This document shows, piece after piece, positions 1 to 8,077 of a DNA stretch of 64,000 bases. Under the pieces are notes generated by a model. It searched no databases, was not told the DNA's origin, and saw only the letters and a program-made list of their open reading frames with translations. Both the position numbers and the translations under genes were made by a program. Every line of letters starts with the position of its first letter. Position 1 is the stretch's first letter. Source of the stretch: Gammaproteobacteria bacterium (GTDB lineage: Bacteria; Pseudomonadota; Gammaproteobacteria; Pseudomonadales; Azotimanducaceae); the NCBI GenBank assembly GCA_026706385.1, contig JAPOYV010000114.1, positions 1 to 64,000 on the forward strand. The letters are read 5' to 3'.

Positions 1-245
1 AGCTCGGGATCCTGCTCCGGACGGTGGTGCTCGATATGGCAGCCCCGGCACAGCACTTCGCAGTTTCCACGGTCGAAGCATCGCCGCTCCGCTTCCTCGG
101 GCGAGTCGGCATCCGCCAGTCTGTCGCGGTGGTGGACCTCGAGCGCGCTGCCGACCGCGCCGCACCGCTCGCACCGCTCGCCACGCTCCACGATGATGCC
201 GGCGCGGAACCGGCGCCATCGCGCCGTCTGTCTCGGGCCGCTCAC
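1..245 (-). CDS. HNH endonuclease, phage type (partial, 3' end outside window)
   Basis: This small phage nuclease gene usually sits beside the terminase and assists DNA packaging and cos cleavage. The frame opens with GTG at 245-243, overlapping the terminase stop (244-242) in a GTGA junction, and runs off the window after 81 codons. The visible protein has a CxxC pair (CERC), a HH doublet (EVHHRD), then N-C-EVLC-xx-CH (near residues 63-72), the layout of a zinc-stabilised HNH/ββα-metal fold. It is the last visible gene of the leftward structural cassette, and the GTGA overlap suggests translational coupling to the terminase. Family assignment is firm; the role in packaging is inferred from position. 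Confidence 0.8.
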   Translation of the reverse strand, partial: MSGPRQTARWRRFRAGIIVERGERCERCGAVGSALEVHHRDRLADADSPEEAERRCFDRGNCEVLCRGCHIEHHRPEQDPE

Positions 246-1672
246 AGTTCGTAGACCACGGCCTGACGCCCCGTCGGCGCTCGCGCCCGCCGGCGTTCGG
301 CTTCCCCGGCGGCCAGCACCAGCGCGGCGGCCACGTCGTCGCGCGCCGTGTTGTTCGACCCGTCCCGCTTGATGAGCCTGACGTTCCCCGAATCGTCCGG
401 CTTGACCAGTGCGGCCGACAGCGAAGCCGTGATGAGTCCGACGCTTTCTCCGCGGCACGACAGCGGCCCGTCCTTCGCCCACTTCCGCAGGGCGCGGATG
501 TCGAAGCCGGCTTCCGACCATCGCGTCTGCCGGGACTTCACCCGGCAGCGCGGCTTGGAGTCCAGAAGCTCGTGGATGCGGAAGCGGTCGCAGACCACGA
601 CCGAAGGATCGCCCCACATGTCGGCTATCGCACTGGTGAGCATGGCGACCGGCGGCACCCGCAAGCCTTCGGCGACCATCAGCCGGCCAGTGGCCTGCAG
701 TTTCCGGTAGGTGCCCGCCGGCACCCGGTCCCGCTTTTCCTGAGCTTCAAGATCGGGCACGCCGGGCGCGACGGCCACGGCCTCCAGCCGGCCCGACGGC
801 CACATGGCGACTGCCGCCGACCAGGCGCGGCCGCCCCCGAGGTCGATGCCGACCGCCGGCTTGCCCGCCGGCAGGGCTTCGGCGCGCCGGCGTGTCCGCT
901 GCCAGTCGTCCACGTCCAGCAACATGGTCGACTCGTCGGCGCTCGGCACGTTGAGCCGGTAGGACATGAAGCGCGCCCGCAGGCGGGAGTCGCGGCGCGC
1001 CGTGTCGCGTTCCTCCAGGAGCTTGGCGCGGAACTTGGCATCGATGTTCGACAGCGGGTTGCACCGCCGGATTTCCGGCCATTGGTCCCAGCGGTCGCGG
1101 TCGCCGCACAACGCCTGCACGTACTGCGAGCCGTGCGACCCGTCCCGGATGATTTCATGCCACCAGCCGTCGAACGCCGGCGCGAGGGTGCCGATGAGTA
1201 CCGCCTTCAGCGGACTGCCGGGCTTTCCCTTCGCGGTGTCGATGGCGTCCCAAAGTAGCTGTCCGCCGTTGACTTCCCAGGCCCCGGGTTCGTCGCAGAT
1301 CGCGTAGGGGCAGTTCACCAGCCCCATCGCCGTCTTGCCGTTGGAGCCGATTACACGCAAGCGCGTCCCGGTGTCCGGGTGCGTGATCGCGCAGCGGGTC
1401 GCGCTGTCGAGGAACCGGTACTCGCCCGTTGGCTCCAACCACGACCTGGCGAAGCGGAAGACGATGCGCGCCTGTTCGATGGATGCCGCGCACAACACCG
1501 ACTCGGTACCGGCGACGAACAGCCGGTCGGTCGGCGTCAGGACGCGGGCGACGAGGTGGCCGGCCAGCGCGGACTTGCCGTTGCCGCGCGGTATCGACAG
1601 GGCGGCCGTGTCAACGTAGGGGTCGGTGGCTTCCCTGATGAACTGCCGCTGGAAGGGTCGCAACTGGAGCAT
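242..1672 (-). CDS. Phage terminase large subunit
   Basis: This is the ATP-driven DNA packaging motor and headful/cos nuclease of a tailed-phage-like particle, 476 residues. The N-terminal ATPase half has a Walker A (PRGNGKS, residues 28-34) and a Walker B followed by the catalytic carboxylate (YAICDEPG, D127/E128). The C-terminal RNase-H-like nuclease half shows acidic residues in the expected spacing: GIDLGGG (D277), VVCDRF (D362) and ARDDVA (D445/D446). It lies downstream of the portal gene with an 89-base gap and overlaps the HNH gene. No small terminase subunit is seen in the window; it may lie to the left. Confidence 0.92.
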   Translation of the reverse strand: MLQLRPFQRQFIREATDPYVDTAALSIPRGNGKSALAGHLVARVLTPTDRLFVAGTESVLCAASIEQARIVFRFARSWLEPTGEYRFLDSATRCAITHPDTGTRLRVIGSNGKTAMGLVNCPYAICDEPGAWEVNGGQLLWDAIDTAKGKPGSPLKAVLIGTLAPAFDGWWHEIIRDGSHGSQYVQALCGDRDRWDQWPEIRRCNPLSNIDAKFRAKLLEERDTARRDSRLRARFMSYRLNVPSADESTMLLDVDDWQRTRRRAEALPAGKPAVGIDLGGGRAWSAAVAMWPSGRLEAVAVAPGVPDLEAQEKRDRVPAGTYRKLQATGRLMVAEGLRVPPVAMLTSAIADMWGDPSVVVCDRFRIHELLDSKPRCRVKSRQTRWSEAGFDIRALRKWAKDGPLSCRGESVGLITASLSAALVKPDDSGNVRLIKRDGSNNTARDDVAAALVLAAGEAERRRARAPTGRQAVVYEL

Positions 1673-1761
1673 GACGGATTACACAGAGCAGAACCCCGGC
1701 GATAGCCCCCCCTTGGAGGTTCCCGAAGGGGGCGGAGAGGGGTGCCCCCATGCCTTCGCGG

Positions 1762-2844
1762 TCAGTCCGCCGTGTCGGCCATGAAGCCGGCGAGCTTCAA
1801 CGCCTGCTCGGCATCGACGCCACTCTCGGCGGCGGCTGCCAGAGCCTGCACGATGGCGAGCGCGGCGCGTGCCCGTCCGGCGGTGTCCGATGCGTGGATG
1901 GACTCGGTGTCCAGCGTCACAGGGGTATCGAGCTTCGCGCTCAGTTCGGCGGCGATCCGCCTGGCGAACGGGTCGAGACTGCCGTATGCGAACTGTCGAT
2001 AGCCTTCCCTTCGTGCCGTGCCGTCCGCTGTTTCGTGGATCATCGACGGGCTGATGCCGCACGCCTGAATGATGGACAGGGACACGGCGTCGCGCACGGT
2101 CGGCAGGCTCGCGGGATAGTTGGCGCCGAAGCGGTGGGCCTGCCATTCGGAACGTACGGACGTGGTGCGGTCCTCGCTGACTTTGTACGGCGACTCCACC
2201 AGATGCACCTTGCCGCGCGATTTCCTGATGCGCTCGGCGAGATTGGCAAAGAAGCCGTCCTCGGGCGGGTCGCTTGTCGGGATGAGCGAGCCGACCGGCG
2301 ACCCGGCCTCGTCGCCTAGCGCGCGCTCCAGTTCGCCGGCGAGCTTCGCGGTCGCGGGCGAGTTGGCGATGGGCGAAACGCCGCGCCAAGGACGGCGCGG
2401 GTCCGTGGCCCACATGAAATGGCAGGCGGCGGTGGCCGGCAGCACCCGCGTCCTCGTGTTCGTCGGGCCGTAGTGCGTGACGCGGTACGACCAGGACTCG
2501 GGCACGTGCGTACCGCCGCGAACGTCGAAGTCGCCGGCGACCGACAGCCTCGGCGCCATCATCGCGTCGTCGTACTCGACGGCGAAGACGAGCTCCCCCC
2601 GCCTGACGCACCAGCGGCCTATCAGGCTGAGCACGTCGGGGGTGACGGTACGGGCGAGGCCGGCGGGTTCCACCCGGCACGCGGCCAGCGAGTCGGCGTA
2701 GATGCGCGCGCACGATTCGAGCGCGGCCACGCCCAGGATCGTGTTCTTGGTGCCCTCGGCGGTGGCGAGGTCGCCGCTCAAGAGTTGCAACGTGTACCCG
2801 TCCAACGCCTCGCGCCGCTCGGGCCTCCGGGCGAACGGCCACAT
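1762..2844 (-). CDS. Phage portal protein, HK97-type
   Basis: The portal forms the dodecameric ring at the capsid vertex through which DNA enters. ATG at 2844-2842 overlaps the TGA of the adaptor gene (2846-2844) in a TGATG junction; this fixes the start, although the frame stays open much further upstream without protein-like sequence. The 360-residue product begins MWPFARRPERRE. It contains portal-like stretches such as a phospho-ring start (TKNTILGVAALESCARIYADS), HFMWATDPRRPWRGVSPI and a C-terminal GISPSMIH segment. Length is near the usual 350-450. Its order after protease and adaptor is reversed relative to the standard HK97 cassette. Confidence 0.88.
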   Translation of the reverse strand: MWPFARRPERREALDGYTLQLLSGDLATAEGTKNTILGVAALESCARIYADSLAACRVEPAGLARTVTPDVLSLIGRWCVRRGELVFAVEYDDAMMAPRLSVAGDFDVRGGTHVPESWSYRVTHYGPTNTRTRVLPATAACHFMWATDPRRPWRGVSPIANSPATAKLAGELERALGDEAGSPVGSLIPTSDPPEDGFFANLAERIRKSRGKVHLVESPYKVSEDRTTSVRSEWQAHRFGANYPASLPTVRDAVSLSIIQACGISPSMIHETADGTARREGYRQFAYGSLDPFARRIAAELSAKLDTPVTLDTESIHASDTAGRARAALAIVQALAAAAESGVDAEQALKLAGFMADTAD

Positions 2845-3422
2845 CAGCCGATCACCTGAGTATCGGCGCGGACGGCGAACCGCCTGACCGCCGCCCGCAC
2901 GTTCGGCTTGGCGAGCGGTCGGCCGCCGGTGCCGCGTTCGCCCTGCCCGCTTCTGAACCGCCACATCGCGAGGCTCAGGACGGCCTCCTGTATCGCGTAG
3001 CGGCCTTGCGCCGGGTCGGAGTGGTAGGACACCCGCGCTTCCCCGTTCGCCAGCGTGCCGCCGAGATACACGTCGTAGCGGCCTCTCAGGCGCACGTCCG
3101 CCGCCGGGATCTCCGTCTCCGCGTCGCCTGCAACGACGAACACGCGCGGCTTGTCCTCGTCCACCACGCTCGCGGGCGCGGACAGCCGCATCCGGCGTTC
3201 GAGGGAGTCGTACCAGTCGTGCCGTTCCTGCTTGGCCAGCCCCATGCCGAGCGCGGCGGCGACCTCCTCGACGGCGGCGTTGTACGCCCGCCCGAGCGCG
3301 TCTTCGTGGTCCCTGTTGGATGCGTCCAGCCCGGCGGCGCGGCGCAGCGTCGGCATGTCGATGCCGTCGTAGGTGTACGACTCGCACTCGGTGCGCCCGA
3401 GGATCGGGAGCCCTACAGCCAC
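2844..3422 (-). CDS. Phage head-tail adaptor (gp6-like connector)
   Basis: This 192-residue protein probably forms the adaptor ring that docks beneath the portal. It starts with GTG at 3422 and overlaps the last ten bases of the protease gene. The sequence is helix-rich at the start (MPTLRRAAGLDASNRDHEDALGRAYN), then has a beta-rich region and a helical segment RYAIQEAVLSLAMWRFR that resembles the helical bundle of gp6/phiE125 gp8 connectors. No diagnostic motif is visible, so the call rests mainly on size, helix content and its place between protease and portal. Confidence 0.6.
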   Translation of the reverse strand: MAVGLPILGRTECESYTYDGIDMPTLRRAAGLDASNRDHEDALGRAYNAAVEEVAAALGMGLAKQERHDWYDSLERRMRLSAPASVVDEDKPRVFVVAGDAETEIPAADVRLRGRYDVYLGGTLANGEARVSYHSDPAQGRYAIQEAVLSLAMWRFRSGQGERGTGGRPLAKPNVRAAVRRFAVRADTQVIG

Positions 3423-3895
3423 AGGACGGCGCTCCGCTTCCAGGGTGGCAGTTGCGACCGCCGGACTTCGGCAGAGTTGCCGTATGCGGCATCGTCAACG
3501 AGGCCCGCGCCGACCAGGCGGGCCGCGCGGATTTCGCGCAAACCGTCCCGGCGCCCCTCGTCGATGGCGACGAACTCGGCAGAGAAGCCGCGCAAGGTGC
3601 CGTTACGCACCATGACGGCAGCGTCGCGCCCCGCCGTGGTGTCGGGAAGGTCGAAGGCGATACGAACGTCCCGGCCTTCCAACAGCGGCGTACAGCGCAT
3701 TACAGGGCGCTTGCGGTCATGCGCGAGATTCAGGACAACGCCATCGTCGGGCCAACTCAGCGAGCCGGGCGCGAAGACTTCCCGGCGGTCGCGGGCGCGT
3801 TCCCCGTAGGTGAGCAGGACGCCCGACAAGTGGCCGGGCGAGAGCCGGGCTTGGTCGGCCCGGTACTCGATGGCGCAACGAATCTCGATGTTCAT
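3413..3895 (-). CDS. HK97-family prohead protease (peptidase S78)
   Basis: This serine protease matures the prohead by cleaving scaffold domains. ATG at 3895-3893 overlaps the TGA of the preceding NTPase gene (3894-3892), which supports this start over a longer upstream reading. The 160-residue protein has the family signature: an LSGVLLTYGE opening strand, FAPGSL, LNLAHDRKRP with the probable catalytic His59, and LRGFSAEF with the probable catalytic Ser105. An EIRAARLVGAGLVDDAAYG segment matches the usual EVSLVxxPAxPxA region. It is followed by adaptor and portal. Confidence 0.88.
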   Translation of the reverse strand: MNIEIRCAIEYRADQARLSPGHLSGVLLTYGERARDRREVFAPGSLSWPDDGVVLNLAHDRKRPVMRCTPLLEGRDVRIAFDLPDTTAGRDAAVMVRNGTLRGFSAEFVAIDEGRRDGLREIRAARLVGAGLVDDAAYGNSAEVRRSQLPPWKRSAVLWL

Positions 3896-4329
3896 GGTCG
3901 AAGCCTCGCGTACCAGCGGGCGATGGCGCTCTCGCACTGTGCGGACAACTGCCCGGTCACCGCGTCGGCGAGCCTGGCGGCCACCACGTCGCGGCCCGGG
4001 TCGAATACGCGCTCGCTTGCGCCGTCGCCGAGCAGATCAAGCAGGAAGCGCCGGCGCTCGGGATCCCCGTCCGAGTTGGTCAGCACGACGGACATGTCGC
4101 GGTTGACCGCCCCGGTCACGACCGCGCGCCTGACGTACTCGGCGAGCGGCAGAATCCAGTCGGGACGCACCGGATAGCGACCGTCGCCAGCGCGCTCGAG
4201 CAGCAGCAGCGCGACAACGATGGACTGGAAGTCGGCGGCGACCGCCGGACCTTCCAGTTGGGCGAGCAGTTGCCGCGCGAGTTGCGACTTGCCCGCGCCG
4301 GCAGGGCCGCTCAGCAGGACGCCCGCCAC
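3892..4329 (-). CDS. Small P-loop NTPase embedded in the capsid cassette
   Basis: A 145-residue protein with a clear Walker A (GPAGAGKS, residues 8-15) and a QSIVVALLLLE helix. A possible Walker B/sensor strand, MSVVLTNSDGDPERR, follows near residues 79-93. It starts with GTG at 4329, six bases after the capsid stop, and overlaps the protease by ATGA, so it is embedded in one translationally coupled block. The family is an AAA/P-loop NTPase; its substrate is unknown. A kinase-like or assembly-chaperone role is possible. It is not a canonical HK97 morphogenesis gene. Confidence 0.7.
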   Translation of the reverse strand: MAGVLLSGPAGAGKSQLARQLLAQLEGPAVAADFQSIVVALLLLERAGDGRYPVRPDWILPLAEYVRRAVVTGAVNRDMSVVLTNSDGDPERRRFLLDLLGDGASERVFDPGRDVVAARLADAVTGQLSAQCESAIARWYARLRP

Positions 4330-4335
4330 GGTCGG

Positions 4336-5619
4336 TCAGTCGGCGACGAACTTGACGCGCGCGAAGTTGGAAGCGCGCGGGAGGGCGAAGTTCCAATAGT
4401 GCGAGAGGGTCAGCAGCACCTGGCCGGACTTCGCCGCCGTGTACGGGTCGCGGATGAGGCTCGCGCTGTTCCAGACCGCCGCCACGCCGGCCCCGGCGAG
4501 GCCCCGGGCGCGTCCGACGAACGCGCCCCAGTCGCCCGCCTCCGTCGCCGTTTCGATGTCGCCGCGCACCGAACACGCCAGCCCGTTGGCCCGGAGGAAG
4601 GCGAGCAGCGTCTGGTTCTCGGCGGCGGCGTTCGCGATCGTGCCGGCCCACAGGTTGTGGGCGCCGACCGTCAGCACGCAACGCAGGTCCGAAGTCATGC
4701 TCGCGTGCTTGCCGTCCACCAGCCCGAGGAACGCGGCCAGCGTCTCCGCGGCCTTGATCTTGTCCGCCTGCTTGATCTGCGCGTCCACCACGCCGGCGGC
4801 CGTCGTGAGGCCGGCGATGTCGGCGGTGTTCTTGTCCGACCCGGCGTCGCCGACGAACACGGCCCGGTCGACGCCTTCCGTGAGCGCCGCCGACAGGTCG
4901 CGCCTGAGCGCGCCTTCGAGGTCGGGAATCCGCAGCCGGTCCTCCTCGTTGAAGGTCAGGTGGACGGCGTTCCGCGTCGGCTTGATGTCGGTGACGCCGA
5001 TCGTCCACGCCGCCTCCACGGCGTCTTCGGACTTGGCGCGCTGCGCGGCGCTCGCCCCCGCCGTGGTCACCGGGTAGGCCGCGACGCCCGCGCCGACGGA
5101 ATCGAACGTGACCCCGACCCGCATGGCCGCCGTGTCCGAGAACAACCTATCGAGCCAGCGTTTTTGGCTCTCGGCGGTGTCGACCGCCGTCTGCGCCCGG
5201 TCCTCGACGTTGCGTTGCCGGACTTCGGGAGGAGGCGCGAGCAGTTCCAGCGGAAACGCGGCGACCGCCTGCAGTTCGACCGCCGCGTTGTACTCGGCTT
5301 CCCGACCGTCGACCGCGCGCTGCTCGATCGCGGCGGCGACGTAGTTGCCGAGCCGGATGGACTCGCGCAGTTCCCGGCGCTCGCGCGCTTCGGCATCCTC
5401 GCCCTCGGGCTGGTTCGGAAACTCGCGGGCGCGCTGTTCCGCGTCCCGAGCCTCCACCAGTTCGGCGGCGCGGATCTCGGTGTCGAACTGGCCCATGCGC
5501 GCGGTGATCGTCTCGACCTCGGTGCGTTCGTCGTCGGTCAGTTCGTCCTTGCCGACGAGGGCGGCGAGACGGCTCCGCTTTTCGGCCTGTTCCTGCTTCA
5601 GCTTGTCCGATTTCAGCAT
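4336..5619 (-). CDS. HK97-fold major capsid protein
   Basis: This 427-residue protein is the main shell subunit. Residues 1 to about 75 form a charged, heptad-rich coiled coil (start MLKSDKLKQEQAEKRSRLAA), typical of the delta/scaffold domain removed by the S78 protease. The remainder has HK97-family features: a central VGVTFDSVGAGVAAYPV, a spine-helix region LEGALRRDLSAALTEGVDRAVFVGD, and the C-terminal GRARGLAGAGVAAVWNSASLIRDPYT segment. A GGGAG ribosome-binding site lies just upstream of ATG 5619. It is the first gene of the leftward block, opposite to the usual portal-protease-capsid order. Confidence 0.9.
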   Translation of the reverse strand: MLKSDKLKQEQAEKRSRLAALVGKDELTDDERTEVETITARMGQFDTEIRAAELVEARDAEQRAREFPNQPEGEDAEARERRELRESIRLGNYVAAAIEQRAVDGREAEYNAAVELQAVAAFPLELLAPPPEVRQRNVEDRAQTAVDTAESQKRWLDRLFSDTAAMRVGVTFDSVGAGVAAYPVTTAGASAAQRAKSEDAVEAAWTIGVTDIKPTRNAVHLTFNEEDRLRIPDLEGALRRDLSAALTEGVDRAVFVGDAGSDKNTADIAGLTTAAGVVDAQIKQADKIKAAETLAAFLGLVDGKHASMTSDLRCVLTVGAHNLWAGTIANAAAENQTLLAFLRANGLACSVRGDIETATEAGDWGAFVGRARGLAGAGVAAVWNSASLIRDPYTAAKSGQVLLTLSHYWNFALPRASNFARVKFVAD

Positions 5620-5690
5620 CGGCGCTCCCGGTTGGTGGGTTTGGCCGAATAGTAGTGGATTTCGCCATGTGCGGGGCCATAATCGCCGCC

Positions 5691-5969
5691 ATGTCCGTGG
5701 TCACCGCTTGGCTGCCCGACCGGGCGCGCGTCACCGCCCGGGTGCTGCGTCCGGCGCCGGCAGGGGTGTACGGGACGGAGCGCACCGGCGACCTGCCGGA
5801 AGCGACGATGAGGCTTTCGCTGCCGATCACCCGGTCCACGTCCCGCGTCCGGGGCGGCGACTACATCGAGATTGGCGCGACCCGCTGGGAGCCGCCCCGC
5901 AAGCTGCAGGTCTATCAGGTGGAGACGCGGGACGGGCGCGTTGTGGTCAGCCTGACCGGACGCCGATGA
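5691..5969 (+). CDS. Small beta-rich protein between capsid and integrase, unknown function
   Basis: This 92-residue protein is encoded opposite to every other gene of the phage-like element. ATG 5691 is chosen; an in-frame ATG at 5655 would add 12 residues. The sequence alternates charged and hydrophobic residues (VTARVLR, MRLSLPIT, DYIEIGATRWE, KLQVYQVETRDGRVVVSL) as in a small beta-barrel or head-closure protein, but I recognise no family. Its last 23 bases overlap the integrase 3' end tail-to-tail. It could be a decoration protein, a regulator or a moron. Confidence 0.5.
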   Translation: MSVVTAWLPDRARVTARVLRPAPAGVYGTERTGDLPEATMRLSLPITRSTSRVRGGDYIEIGATRWEPPRKLQVYQVETRDGRVVVSLTGRR

Positions 5970-7167
5970 CGATGAAGTCGGCCCACTTCGCCATGACCGC
6001 GCGGCGGCGCTCGATGTAGTCGCTTCGCTTGTACGCCTGCTCGACGGCGTTGCCTATCTCGTGCGCCAGACACAGTTCGGCAAGCTCGCGGTCTATGCCC
6101 TGCTCACCGGCCCACGTGCGGAAGGACGCCCTGAATCCGTGCGGCGAACAGTTCCCGACACCAGCGGCCCGCAGGCTTTCGGACGCGCGAGCCGTCCGCA
6201 TCCGCGTGCCGTCCCTCGGCGACGGGAACACCAGCGGCCCTTGGCCGGATTCGCGGGCGCGTCGGAACACGTCCTTTGCGGCATCGGTCAGCGGCACATG
6301 ATGTTCGCGGTTCGCCTTCATGCGTTCCGCCGGTATGACCCAGATGTCGGATTCGATCTCGGCCCACGCCGCCCCGAAGGCTTCGCCGGCCCGCACTCCG
6401 GTCAGCACCATGAGTTCCAGCGCAAGCGCCCTGCTCAGGTAACGGCGGTCGGACTCGCCCCACTCGCGCACCTTCGCAACGGCGTTCGCGACCGCTTCGG
6501 GACGCAACGACTTGTGCGGCGTGTGCTTGAGCGGCTTCTTGGGCATTACGGCGGTTATGTCCTCGAAAGGATTGGTGGCCGTCCGAAGGCCGTTGACGAT
6601 TGCCCATCGCACCGCTTGCGTGAGCCTCATGCGGACTGCCCGCCCCATCGTCGGCGAGGGCAGGGACTGGATGGCGAGCAACGCTTCCCGCGCGGTGACC
6701 TCCGCTACTGGACGGGCCAAGAGTTCGGGCAGGTGTCGGCGGACTGCCAACCAGTCCCGCGTTTGGTTGGCCCGGGATGTCGGCTTCCACTCGGCACTAC
6801 GAAGGTTCACGACCTCGACTAGGCAATCGTCAACCGTCGCGGTGCCGGCGGCGATGCGTTCCTGCCGTGGCGGCCGCACGGCGGGTTTCGGTTGTCGCGG
6901 TCGGCGCGGATCAATGCCCACCTTCGACTTGTGCCAATTCTCCTCGGCGAGCTTCCGCGCATCGATGAGTCCGACCGCCGGGTAACCGCCGAGTCCGATG
7001 TTGGTGATCTTCCCCTGGATGAGCAGCCGTTGAGTCCAGGTTCTGGTGCCGGTCGGCAGGACGCGGAGCGCCAGACCGTGGCCGTTGCGACCGTCGCCCA
7101 AGGTGTACGTCCTTTTGAGGGGTTTCGCGCCTTCGCAGCGCGCCGGCGTGAGTGCCTTGGTTCTCAT
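5947..7167 (-). CDS. Tyrosine-type integrase (P4-like, DUF4102 arm domain)
   Basis: This recombinase integrates and excises the element. ATG 7167 is preferred because an AAGGA ribosome-binding site precedes it and the protein then starts MRTKALTPARCEGAKP, as DUF4102 integrases do. The 406 residues comprise an N-terminal arm-binding domain (TLGDGRNGHGLALRV), a SAM-like core-binding domain (about 110-210) and the catalytic domain. Catalytic residues visible are R259 (LTGVRAGEA), H343 and R346 (PHGFRAS), H369 (LAHEIG) and Y379 (EQAYKRSD). The gene lies at the right edge of the element, reading inward. Confidence 0.92.
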   Translation of the reverse strand: MRTKALTPARCEGAKPLKRTYTLGDGRNGHGLALRVLPTGTRTWTQRLLIQGKITNIGLGGYPAVGLIDARKLAEENWHKSKVGIDPRRPRQPKPAVRPPRQERIAAGTATVDDCLVEVVNLRSAEWKPTSRANQTRDWLAVRRHLPELLARPVAEVTAREALLAIQSLPSPTMGRAVRMRLTQAVRWAIVNGLRTATNPFEDITAVMPKKPLKHTPHKSLRPEAVANAVAKVREWGESDRRYLSRALALELMVLTGVRAGEAFGAAWAEIESDIWVIPAERMKANREHHVPLTDAAKDVFRRARESGQGPLVFPSPRDGTRMRTARASESLRAAGVGNCSPHGFRASFRTWAGEQGIDRELAELCLAHEIGNAVEQAYKRSDYIERRRAVMAKWADFIVIGVRSG

Positions 7168-7214
7168 GGTTGGGTTCCTTCCGTTTCGCGTGTTTTCGCG
7201 TGTGTTACTTTGGC

Positions 7215-7244
7215 TGGCGTCCACTGGCGTCCAGCGGCGTCTAA
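7215..7244. repeat. Three tandem 10-bp repeats upstream of the integrase
   Basis: The units TGGCGTCCAC (7215-7224), TGGCGTCCAG (7225-7234) and CGGCGTCTAA (7235-7244) sit 48-77 bases upstream of the integrase start, with a partial fourth unit GGCGTT after them. A 10-bp period places every copy on the same DNA face. Integrase arm sites, an excisionase site or an operator controlling integrase are all plausible; the function is inferred. Confidence 0.7.
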
Positions 7245-7258
7245 GGCGTTGATTATAA

Positions 7259-8077
7259 GGCGCGGACTGCCGTTTAGGTAGCTTCTACTACACGGTCCCG
7301 GACGGCCACAATCCCGCGGGTTTCTCGTTCAGCACCGCGCGCCGCCACGAGATCCTGGAGATCGCCCGCGCCGAGGGCTTGCTGATCGTGGAGGACGCCC
7401 CCTACGTCTACATCAGCTACGCCGAACGGTCGGAGCGGCCGCAGCCTTTCGTCGCCCTCGACGCGGCACGGACGGTACACCTGTTCACCGGCTCCAAGAT
7501 TGGGTTGCCGGGTCCGCGCGTGGGCTTCGCCTATTCGGAGGCGGTCGTCGAAATCGAGAACGGCGAACGGGCACCGCTCGCCGACCTCTTGCTCACCGAA
7601 GCCAGCGCCGACATCCTGTTCCACAACCCCCAGGCGCTCCGCTCGTTCGAGTCTCTTCTGTTCGACGAGGCGTTCCAACGCCGCGACTCCCTCTGGCCCG
7701 TGGCCGAGAAGAAGCTCGCTGTCTACCGCGAGAACCGGACGGTCTTGCTTGACGGACTTGAGGCCAAGTTAGGCGCTCACCCTGACCGGTTCCGCTGGAC
7801 GGAGCCGCAAGCCGGGTTCTTCAGCGTATTCACGTTCCTCGACCCCGATGTCACCACCGACGACGCGTTCGTTTCCAGGCTCGTTGCCGAGCACGGCGTC
7901 GTCGTGATTCCCATGTACGACTTCTACCCGCCTGATGCGCGGCGCCGCAACCCGCGGGCCGGGTTGAACCAGTTGCGCCTGTCGTTCTGCTTCACGGAAA
8001 GCGTTGGCAAGAAGCGCGTTGCGGACCTGACCGCGGCGGTCGCAGCGTTCGCCGACGCGGCGCTTGCGATCGGTTGA
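7259..8077 (+). pseudogene. 5'-truncated PLP-dependent class I/II aminotransferase
   Basis: Only the last 273 codons of a fold-type I aminotransferase remain. The frame opens just after a TAA at 7256 and begins to look like aminotransferase at about 7283 (FYYTVPDGHNPAGFSFS), with no proper start codon; TTG 7379 is internal. Visible landmarks are the NP.G loop (HNPAG), the cofactor Asp region (LIVEDAPYVYISY), the PLP lysine (FTGSKIGLPGPR) and the C-terminal substrate arginine region (NQLRLSFCF). The residues are like Aro8/2-aminoadipate or valine-pyruvate aminotransferases. The missing 5' half would lie beyond the phage-like element if that element inserted into this gene. Confidence 0.75.

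What the first reader, a model, noticed from the sequence alone, without database searches (positions are those of the whole stretch)
1..7244. Compact, tail-less-looking capsid cassette in reversed gene order beside an integrase
Capsid-NTPase-protease-adaptor-portal-terminase-HNH follow directly from a P4-type integrase, all on one strand, with no regulatory region, tail or lysis genes between. Canonical HK97-type order is terminase-portal-protease-capsid. Most junctions overlap (GTGA, TGATG, ATGA). This resembles capsid-forming phage satellites (for example cf-PICIs) more than a complete prophage, but the left end is outside the window.
Basis: partly seen in the sequence, partly recalled or inferred. 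Interest (0 to 1): 0.72.

Follow-up and report, generated by a model that had tools for sequence, protein, structure and literature searches.

The report
Capsid-making phage satellite lacking tail genes
The window starts inside a roughly 10-kb genetic parasite inserted in a bacterial gene, which carries the genes for its own virus-like shell and DNA-packing motor but no recognised tail genes, so it probably has to borrow a tail from another virus to spread.

Summary
Window 1-7282 is the right arm of an integrated element: integrase, HK97-fold capsid, P-loop NTPase, S78 protease, putative adaptor, portal, TerL and HNH, all on the minus strand. The window starts at a contig end. The element splits an aminotransferase gene at window 7283. 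The gene's other half, and the element's left arm, lie at the end of contig C47 (AlpA-like excisionase, O-like replication protein, ribbon-helix-helix protein, a small unknown). The ends share a 12-bp att core; joining the flanks restores the gene. No tail or lysis gene was recognised in either arm; a gap remains between them. Six related elements with marked ends or circular contigs (9.5-11.2 kb) hold head, packaging and mostly neck genes, no tail module. The window-clade capsid profile hits 14 of 14 cf-PICI-type islands (partly preselected) and 0 of 24 phage-type loci. Verdict: a capsid-forming satellite that works like a cf-PICI, from a divergent clade with relatives in Pseudomonadota, Chloroflexota and Acidobacteriota. 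Membership in the published cf-PICI family stays open. Several relatives fuse the head-tail adaptor to a long fibre-like protein, possibly a one-protein tail.

The parts
7283..7294 (.). attR core TTCTACTACACG; the same 12 bp forms attL on contig C47 (98954-98965)
   Evidence: breakpoint defined
7283..8077 (+). C-terminal part of the interrupted class I/II aminotransferase (host gene)
   Evidence: (PF00155 1.2e-12)
5947..7224 (-). P4-type tyrosine integrase
   Evidence: (phrog_1 9e-40; PF13356, PF00589)
5655..5969 (+). possible small gene (104 aa) on the opposite strand between integrase and capsid; function unknown
   Evidence: GC by codon position; no credible family hit
4336..5619 (-). major capsid protein, helical (delta-like) N-terminal region plus HK97 fold
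3892..4329 (-). P-loop NTPase in the head operon; homologues in C120 and L033
3413..3895 (-). S78 (HK97-type) prohead protease; aligned His and Ser kept
2844..3422 (-). putative head-tail adaptor (by position; homologue in C120)
   Evidence: no credible family hit
1762..2844 (-). portal protein
242..1672 (-). terminase large subunit
3..245 (-). HNH endonuclease, runs off the contig start

Best explanation
This is the right arm of an integrated capsid-forming phage satellite of roughly 10 kb. Shown: it sits between two 12-bp att cores inside an aminotransferase gene. One arm codes for an AlpA-like excisionase, an O-like replication initiator and a ribbon-helix-helix protein. The other codes for integrase, its own HK97-fold capsid, maturation protease, portal, a putative adaptor, and a TerL-HNH packaging pair. 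No tail or lysis gene was recognised. Inferred: when a helper phage grows, integrase and AlpA excise the circle and the Rep protein replicates it. TerL and HNH cut and package the satellite DNA into small heads made only of satellite proteins. The necks of these heads accept tails from the helper, which also lyses the cell. Integration splits, and so presumably inactivates, the aminotransferase; exact excision would restore it.
For: Split host gene, 12-bp core and restored reading frame; the gene is open at full length at 11 of 11 sites fetched from relatives (L006-L016). Left-arm genes: HTH_17 1.4e-8 and phrog_66 3e-6; HTH_36 1.4e-8 and phrog_1032 3e-11; NikA-like 3e-4, below Pfam's cut-off. 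HK97 fold of the capsid. No PF10145 tape measure in the genome. Related elements with marked ends: L034, between a tRNA-Sec gene and a 13-bp copy of its end, 9.96 kb; L032, 13-bp repeat, 10.94 kb; L033, 12-bp repeat, 10.63 kb (tentative: the repeat overlaps the integrase start). Circular contigs: L036 9.79 kb, L061 9.46 kb, L141 11.2 kb. All six have head and packaging genes, most have neck proteins, none shows a tail module. Two cf-PICI-type contigs read in full show capsid-protease-portal-HNH-TerS-TerL-connectors (L156, L163, labels partly my reading). The window-clade capsid profile hits 14 of 14 cf-type loci and 0 of 24 phage-type loci. Patchy distribution: capsid in 0 of 15 congeneric genomes, two copies in this one. 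dN/dS below 1 (integrase 0.38, portal 0.54, NTPase 0.66 against C120).
Against: The C47-C84 gap is unread. No small terminase and no Stl-like repressor was found. No helper, induction or particle has been shown. The capsid profiles do not reach the one solved cf-PICI capsid seen here (9gyi): not at E<=5 or E<=1, though I did not check that the sequence copy holds it. By fold 9gyi is tied with HK97-type and GTA capsids, with encapsulins slightly ahead. The 14 'cf-type' loci were chosen partly because a related capsid profile hit them, and I did not verify a capsid gene in each phage-type stretch. The reverse profile, from cf-type capsids, hits 4 of 24 phage-type loci (4e-15 to 2e-21), more strongly than the window (8e-10), and misses L032 and L033.
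Confidence: 0.8

Rival explanations
1. A minimal autonomous virus: the element makes a complete particle by itself, with a neck appendage instead of a tail.
For: Relatives carry an adaptor fused to a long fibre-like protein: L032 816 aa, L036 694 aa, L141 931 aa, and the adaptor frame runs off the contig end in L035, L062 and L063. Three circular contigs without an integrase hit.
Against: The window's adaptor (192 aa) has no fusion and is followed directly by the portal. No lysis gene was recognised among the ORFs scanned, though no lysis-specific search was run. Fibre hits in PHROGs are weak (0.0012 and 0.0078; none for L036) and lie on Ala-rich stalks. Neck proteins that would accept a tail are present in several members.
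Confidence: 0.07
2. A decaying remnant of an ordinary prophage that lost its tail and lysis genes.
For: Only head genes remain, and a contig break hides part of the element.
Against: The frames are open and dN/dS is below 1. The att core is intact. Elements of like content and size are seen in MAGs of three phyla, and 62 of the 80 viral contigs kept show TerL-HNH-capsid-protease-portal in one order.
Confidence: 0.06
3. A complete prophage whose tail and lysis module lies in the C47-C84 gap.
For: The gap is unread.
Against: No PF10145 tape measure in a 98% complete genome assembly (one tail family only). Bounded or circular relatives are 9.5-11.2 kb against 9.46 kb already seen here. The C47 end is unique in the assembly.
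Confidence: 0.04
4. A gene-transfer-agent-like or encapsulin-like domesticated shell.
For: Best structural neighbours include encapsulins and a native GTA capsid; the portal profile hits the GTA portal Rcc01684 at 2e-6.
Against: Integrase, att sites, excisionase and replication gene; capsid in 0 of 15 congeneric genomes; portal, terminase and protease are not needed by an encapsulin.
Confidence: 0.03

Closest known systems
Capsid-forming PICIs (cf-PICIs; described in passages of PMC10690885 and PMC10803314 and section 10 of PMC13230959; the primary paper of Alqurainy et al. 2023 was not read)
   Same: Own capsid, protease, portal, TerL and HNH, integrase, AlpA-type gene, no recognised tail genes; capsid-protease-portal-terminase order as on the cf-PICI-type contigs L156 and L163.
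   Different: About 10 kb against a reported mean of 14 kb (PMC10803314). No TerS found. HNH after TerL. A P-loop NTPase inside the head operon. A capsid that Pfam and PHROG models miss. Named hosts of close relatives (Rhodospirillaceae, Chloroflexi, Bryobacterales MAGs) are not among those listed in PMC10803314, though PMC10690885 calls cf-PICIs widely distributed across Bacteria.
cf-PISP satellite-plasmids of Vibrio (PMC13230959, section 10 read)
   Same: Tail-less capsid elements; the circular relatives L036, L061 (ColE2-type Replicase PF03090, 1.9e-29) and L141 look like episomal forms.
   Different: The window element is integrated and has integrase and att cores; no parA seen.
Streptomyces satellites MulchRoom and MiniFlayer (PMC10690885, passages)
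   Same: Capsid and packaging genes, dependence on a helper; one carries a tail-type adaptation for attaching to its helper, comparable to the adaptor-fibre fusions of relatives.
   Different: Said there to lack obvious replicases; no tblastn hit of the window TerL to a Streptomyces phage record.
HK97-type siphophages and R4C or GTA capsids
   Same: Fold and chemistry of head proteins; the capsid profile hits 8gta (R4C) at 1.3e-12, TerL hits 6z6d at 2.3e-15.
   Different: Reversed gene order, no recognised tail or lysis genes.

Membership tests
cf-PICI | Encodes major capsid, head maturation protease, portal and head-tail connectors | tested here: met
   adaptor by position only
cf-PICI | Large terminase and HNH | tested here: met
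cf-PICI | Small terminase | tested here: inconclusive
   no credible TerS hit in either arm; gap unread
cf-PICI | Integrase, AlpA-type regulator, replication gene, specific att site | tested here: met
cf-PICI | No tail or lysis genes | tested here: inconclusive
   none recognised in 9.46 kb read nor in six bounded or circular relatives; gap unread
cf-PICI | Sequence kinship with characterised cf-PICIs | tested here: inconclusive
   cf-type contigs hit 14 of 14, phage-type 0 of 24, with partly preselected loci; solved capsid 9gyi matched only by fold, no profile hit
cf-PICI | Induced by a helper phage and packaged with helper tails | not testable with these tools
   needs particles
ordinary prophage | Tail and lysis modules in the same element | tested here: inconclusive
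   not seen in what is assembled; gap unread
gene transfer agent | Vertically kept cluster without integrase or att sites (definition recalled) | tested here: not met
P4-like satellite | No capsid genes of its own, remodels helper capsid | tested here: not met
cf-PISP | Circular, with plasmid maintenance genes | tested here: not met
   integrated; relatives L036, L061 and L141 are circular contigs

The most novel reading that the evidence does not exclude
The window element belongs to a deep, cross-phylum clade of about 10-kb capsid elements in which some lineages have replaced borrowed tails. Their head-tail adaptor is fused to a fibre of about 600-830 residues, giving a one-protein tail (or a helper-docking fibre) on an HK97-fold head. 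These elements live either integrated or as integrase-less circles, and would bridge cf-PICIs, satellite-plasmids and the smallest conceivable tailed viruses. The window and C120 copies would be the tail-borrowing branch of the same clade.
Probability: 0.25. Interest if true: 0.8.

Novelty: new variant of a known kind. Interest (0 to 1): 0.55.

Why it matters
Capsid-forming satellites have mostly been described from a limited set of hosts. The window's capsid is missed by the Pfam, PHROG and NCBIfam models used here, so annotation with these models alone would miss it. Close relatives occur in MAGs of three phyla, and the best 80 of 549 terminase relatives retrieved from viral contigs sit on contigs of at most 18.3 kb, 62 of them with the whole gene set in one order. 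The adaptor-fibre fusions make it possible to ask directly whether a satellite can evolve its own minimal tail. The disrupted aminotransferase gives a ready marker for excision.

Tried and rejected
Capsid as a lone Pfam, PHROG or NCBIfam hit: none for the window protein (the only PHROG row was a family of unknown function at E 0.41). The first AlphaFold run with 4 rows was useless (pLDDT 45) and was replaced by a 77-row run (pLDDT 80.8).

Nucleotide link of a cf-PICI-type contig (L158) to E. coli genomes: none, so no named cf-PICI could be used as a yardstick. A capsid scan of viral contigs gave nothing, a TerL scan only L017, which is identical to part of L031, and a portal scan could not be run. 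tblastn of the window capsid and of the adaptor-fibre proteins of L032 and L036 to phage records: none. The L038 capsid (G032) is a weak, probably ordinary capsid and was not used. G410 (L059) shows only a partial capsid match and was not used. The second terminase scan also returned ordinary phages of 25-53 kb, so terminase similarity alone does not mark a satellite.

Rows dropped: L130 and L132 from the 77-row capsid alignment (75 were found, 73 used, plus window and L031-L033); L055 from the tree because my slice held a stop. The tree has long branches that meet, so only the window+L032+L033 group (100/100), the L039+L034 group (100/100) and the split of 13 from 72 rows (100/99) are quoted. 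The phage-type / cf-type split covers 38 of the 75 loci L141-L215; the rest were too short to class or not classed.
Full report
What is there. The window is the first 64 kb of contig C84 of a 5.1-Mb, 134-contig genome, so the element's left side is cut by the assembly. On the minus strand, from the integrase inward, lie integrase, capsid, P-loop NTPase, S78 protease, putative adaptor, portal, TerL and an HNH gene open at base 1. Four of seven junctions overlap. Gaps of 6, 89 and 327 nt separate capsid-NTPase, portal-TerL and integrase-capsid. The 327-nt stretch carries an opposite-strand ORF of 104 codons with a coding-like base pattern, so the claim of no regulatory space is not right.

Ends. 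Right of the integrase an aminotransferase class I/II gene begins in mid-gene. The closest relative genome has it whole (94% identical). The missing N-terminal half lies at C47:98369-98965, and C47 ends about 2.2 kb later, at 101130. Both junctions share TTCTACTACACG. Joining the flanks gives one open frame of 475 codons like the 463-residue intact protein. The two arms add up to about 9.46 kb plus an unread gap. The left arm reads AlpA-like HTH, O-like replication initiator, NikA/Arc-like protein and a 130-residue protein without Pfam or PHROG hits that looks secreted to me. No tail or lysis gene was recognised. A search of the whole assembly with one tape-measure family was empty, and the end of C47 occurs nowhere else in it.

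Relatives. A TerL scan of named genomes gave three integrated elements: L031 in a Rhodospirillaceae MAG, L032 in a Chloroflexi MAG and L033 in a Bryobacterales MAG, with TerL identities 66, 53 and 46%. I recall such bin names from sponge studies, but no call shows it. A capsid search found 6 of 206 genomes of the window's family, own included (one, G032, with a weak and probably ordinary capsid). None of the 15 other congeneric genomes has it, and the own genome has a second copy on C120 with the same order. In a phylum sample, 14 of 398 genomes hit, own included. Four others hit strongly, and all four show TerL, HNH, capsid, protease and portal together, with an integrase-profile hit nearby in three. 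In these 80, HNH is seen in 79, capsid in 78, protease in 75, portal in 63 and integrase in 22; all five head and packaging genes occur in 63, and in 62 of those in the order TerL, HNH, capsid, protease, portal. Median locus length is 9.5 kb. A second scan also returned ordinary phages.

Complete elements. L034 is bounded by a tRNA-Sec gene and a 13-bp copy of its end (9.96 kb). L032 has a 13-bp repeat (10.94 kb). L033 has a 12-bp repeat (10.63 kb), less sure because it overlaps the integrase start. L031 gave no convincing repeat. L036, L061 and L141 are contigs with exact terminal repeats of 55, 99 and 99 bp, i.e. circles of 9.79, 9.46 and 11.2 kb, without an integrase-profile hit. Their remaining genes include a VapE-like helicase, a ColE2-type replicase, head-completion, neck and HNH proteins. 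No tail module was seen. A weak major-tail-protein match in L033 (0.005) is the nearest thing to one, apart from the fibre fusions. Not every short ORF was scanned.

Order and kinship. The window, C120 and L037 run capsid, protease, adaptor, portal, TerL. Most relatives run TerL, HNH, capsid, protease, portal. Contigs L156 and L163 run integrase, capsid, protease, portal, HNH, a TerS-like protein, TerL, connectors, which matches the list of cf-PICI parts printed in PMC10690885; their portal, TerS and connector labels are my reading of the sequence. A capsid profile from five window-clade proteins hits 14 of 14 cf-type loci and 0 of 24 phage-type loci. The reverse profile, built from cf-type capsids, hits the window (8e-10), L031, L034, L036 and L039, but not L032 or L033, and hits 4 of 24 phage-type loci more strongly. 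In the capsid tree the window groups with L032 and L033 (100/100), and 13 divergent rows separate from 72 others (100/99), with long-branch warnings.

Adaptor-fibre fusions. In L032, L036 and L141 the adaptor domain continues into about 600-830 residues; Gly-rich or Ala-rich stalks are plain in L032 and L141, which share a DQVAR-Ala stalk that L036 lacks. In L035, L062 and L063 the adaptor frame runs off the contig. PHROG fibre matches are weak, and absent for L036; phage records show no homologue of the L032 and L036 proteins. The window, C120, L031, L033, L034 and L061 have plain adaptors. This is the most unusual part of the clade and is not explained by tail borrowing alone.

Intactness. 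The protease keeps the aligned His and Ser, and TerL keeps RGNGKS and CDEPGAW. dN/dS against C120 is 0.38 for integrase, 0.54 for portal and 0.66 for the NTPase. Synonymous change in TerL against L031 is saturated.

Literature seen. Passages of PMC10690885, PMC10803314, PMC12846349, PMC11389934, PMC13345588, PMC6092414 and PMC10187409; passages and section 10 of PMC13230959; abstract and outline of PMC12324425. What I saw of them does not describe this clade or adaptor-fibre fusions, and the listings of searches showed no such paper; most subscription journals are not held.

Verdict. A capsid-forming satellite that works like a cf-PICI, with its key functional step (tail borrowing from a helper) inferred. 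Membership in the published family remains open because TerS, induction and a named reference sequence could not be tested.

Noticed in passing
G000:C120 (locus L023 2495-8769): Second, divergent copy of the same kind of island in the same genome (integrase 61% identical), cut by the contig end inside TerL. Its integrase abuts a frame that reads like a MaoC-type dehydratase (my reading) and may be its target gene.
   Followed up: partly
L032:13555-16005, L036:7688-9772, L141:7958-10753; ends of L035, L062, L063: Head-tail adaptor fused to a long fibre-like protein.
   Followed up: partly
L036, L061, L141: Circular contigs of 9.5-11.2 kb with capsid, portal and terminase and no integrase-profile hit; L061 carries a ColE2-type replicase.
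   Followed up: partly
window 3892-4329; L033:13582-14043; C120 (L039:15330-15752): A P-loop NTPase sits between capsid and protease in three elements; role unknown.
   Followed up: no
C84 start, C120 end, G064:C48 end: The three elements with capsid-first order in the window's family all break in or next to TerL/HNH. Perhaps chance, perhaps mixed integrated and packaged DNA in the samples.
   Followed up: no
L034:1009-1101: Island inserted at a tRNA-Sec gene, another target for the same integrase type.
   Followed up: yes
L147 and L153 (IMG isolate 2890853298): Two cf-PICI-type islands recorded from one isolate.
   Followed up: no
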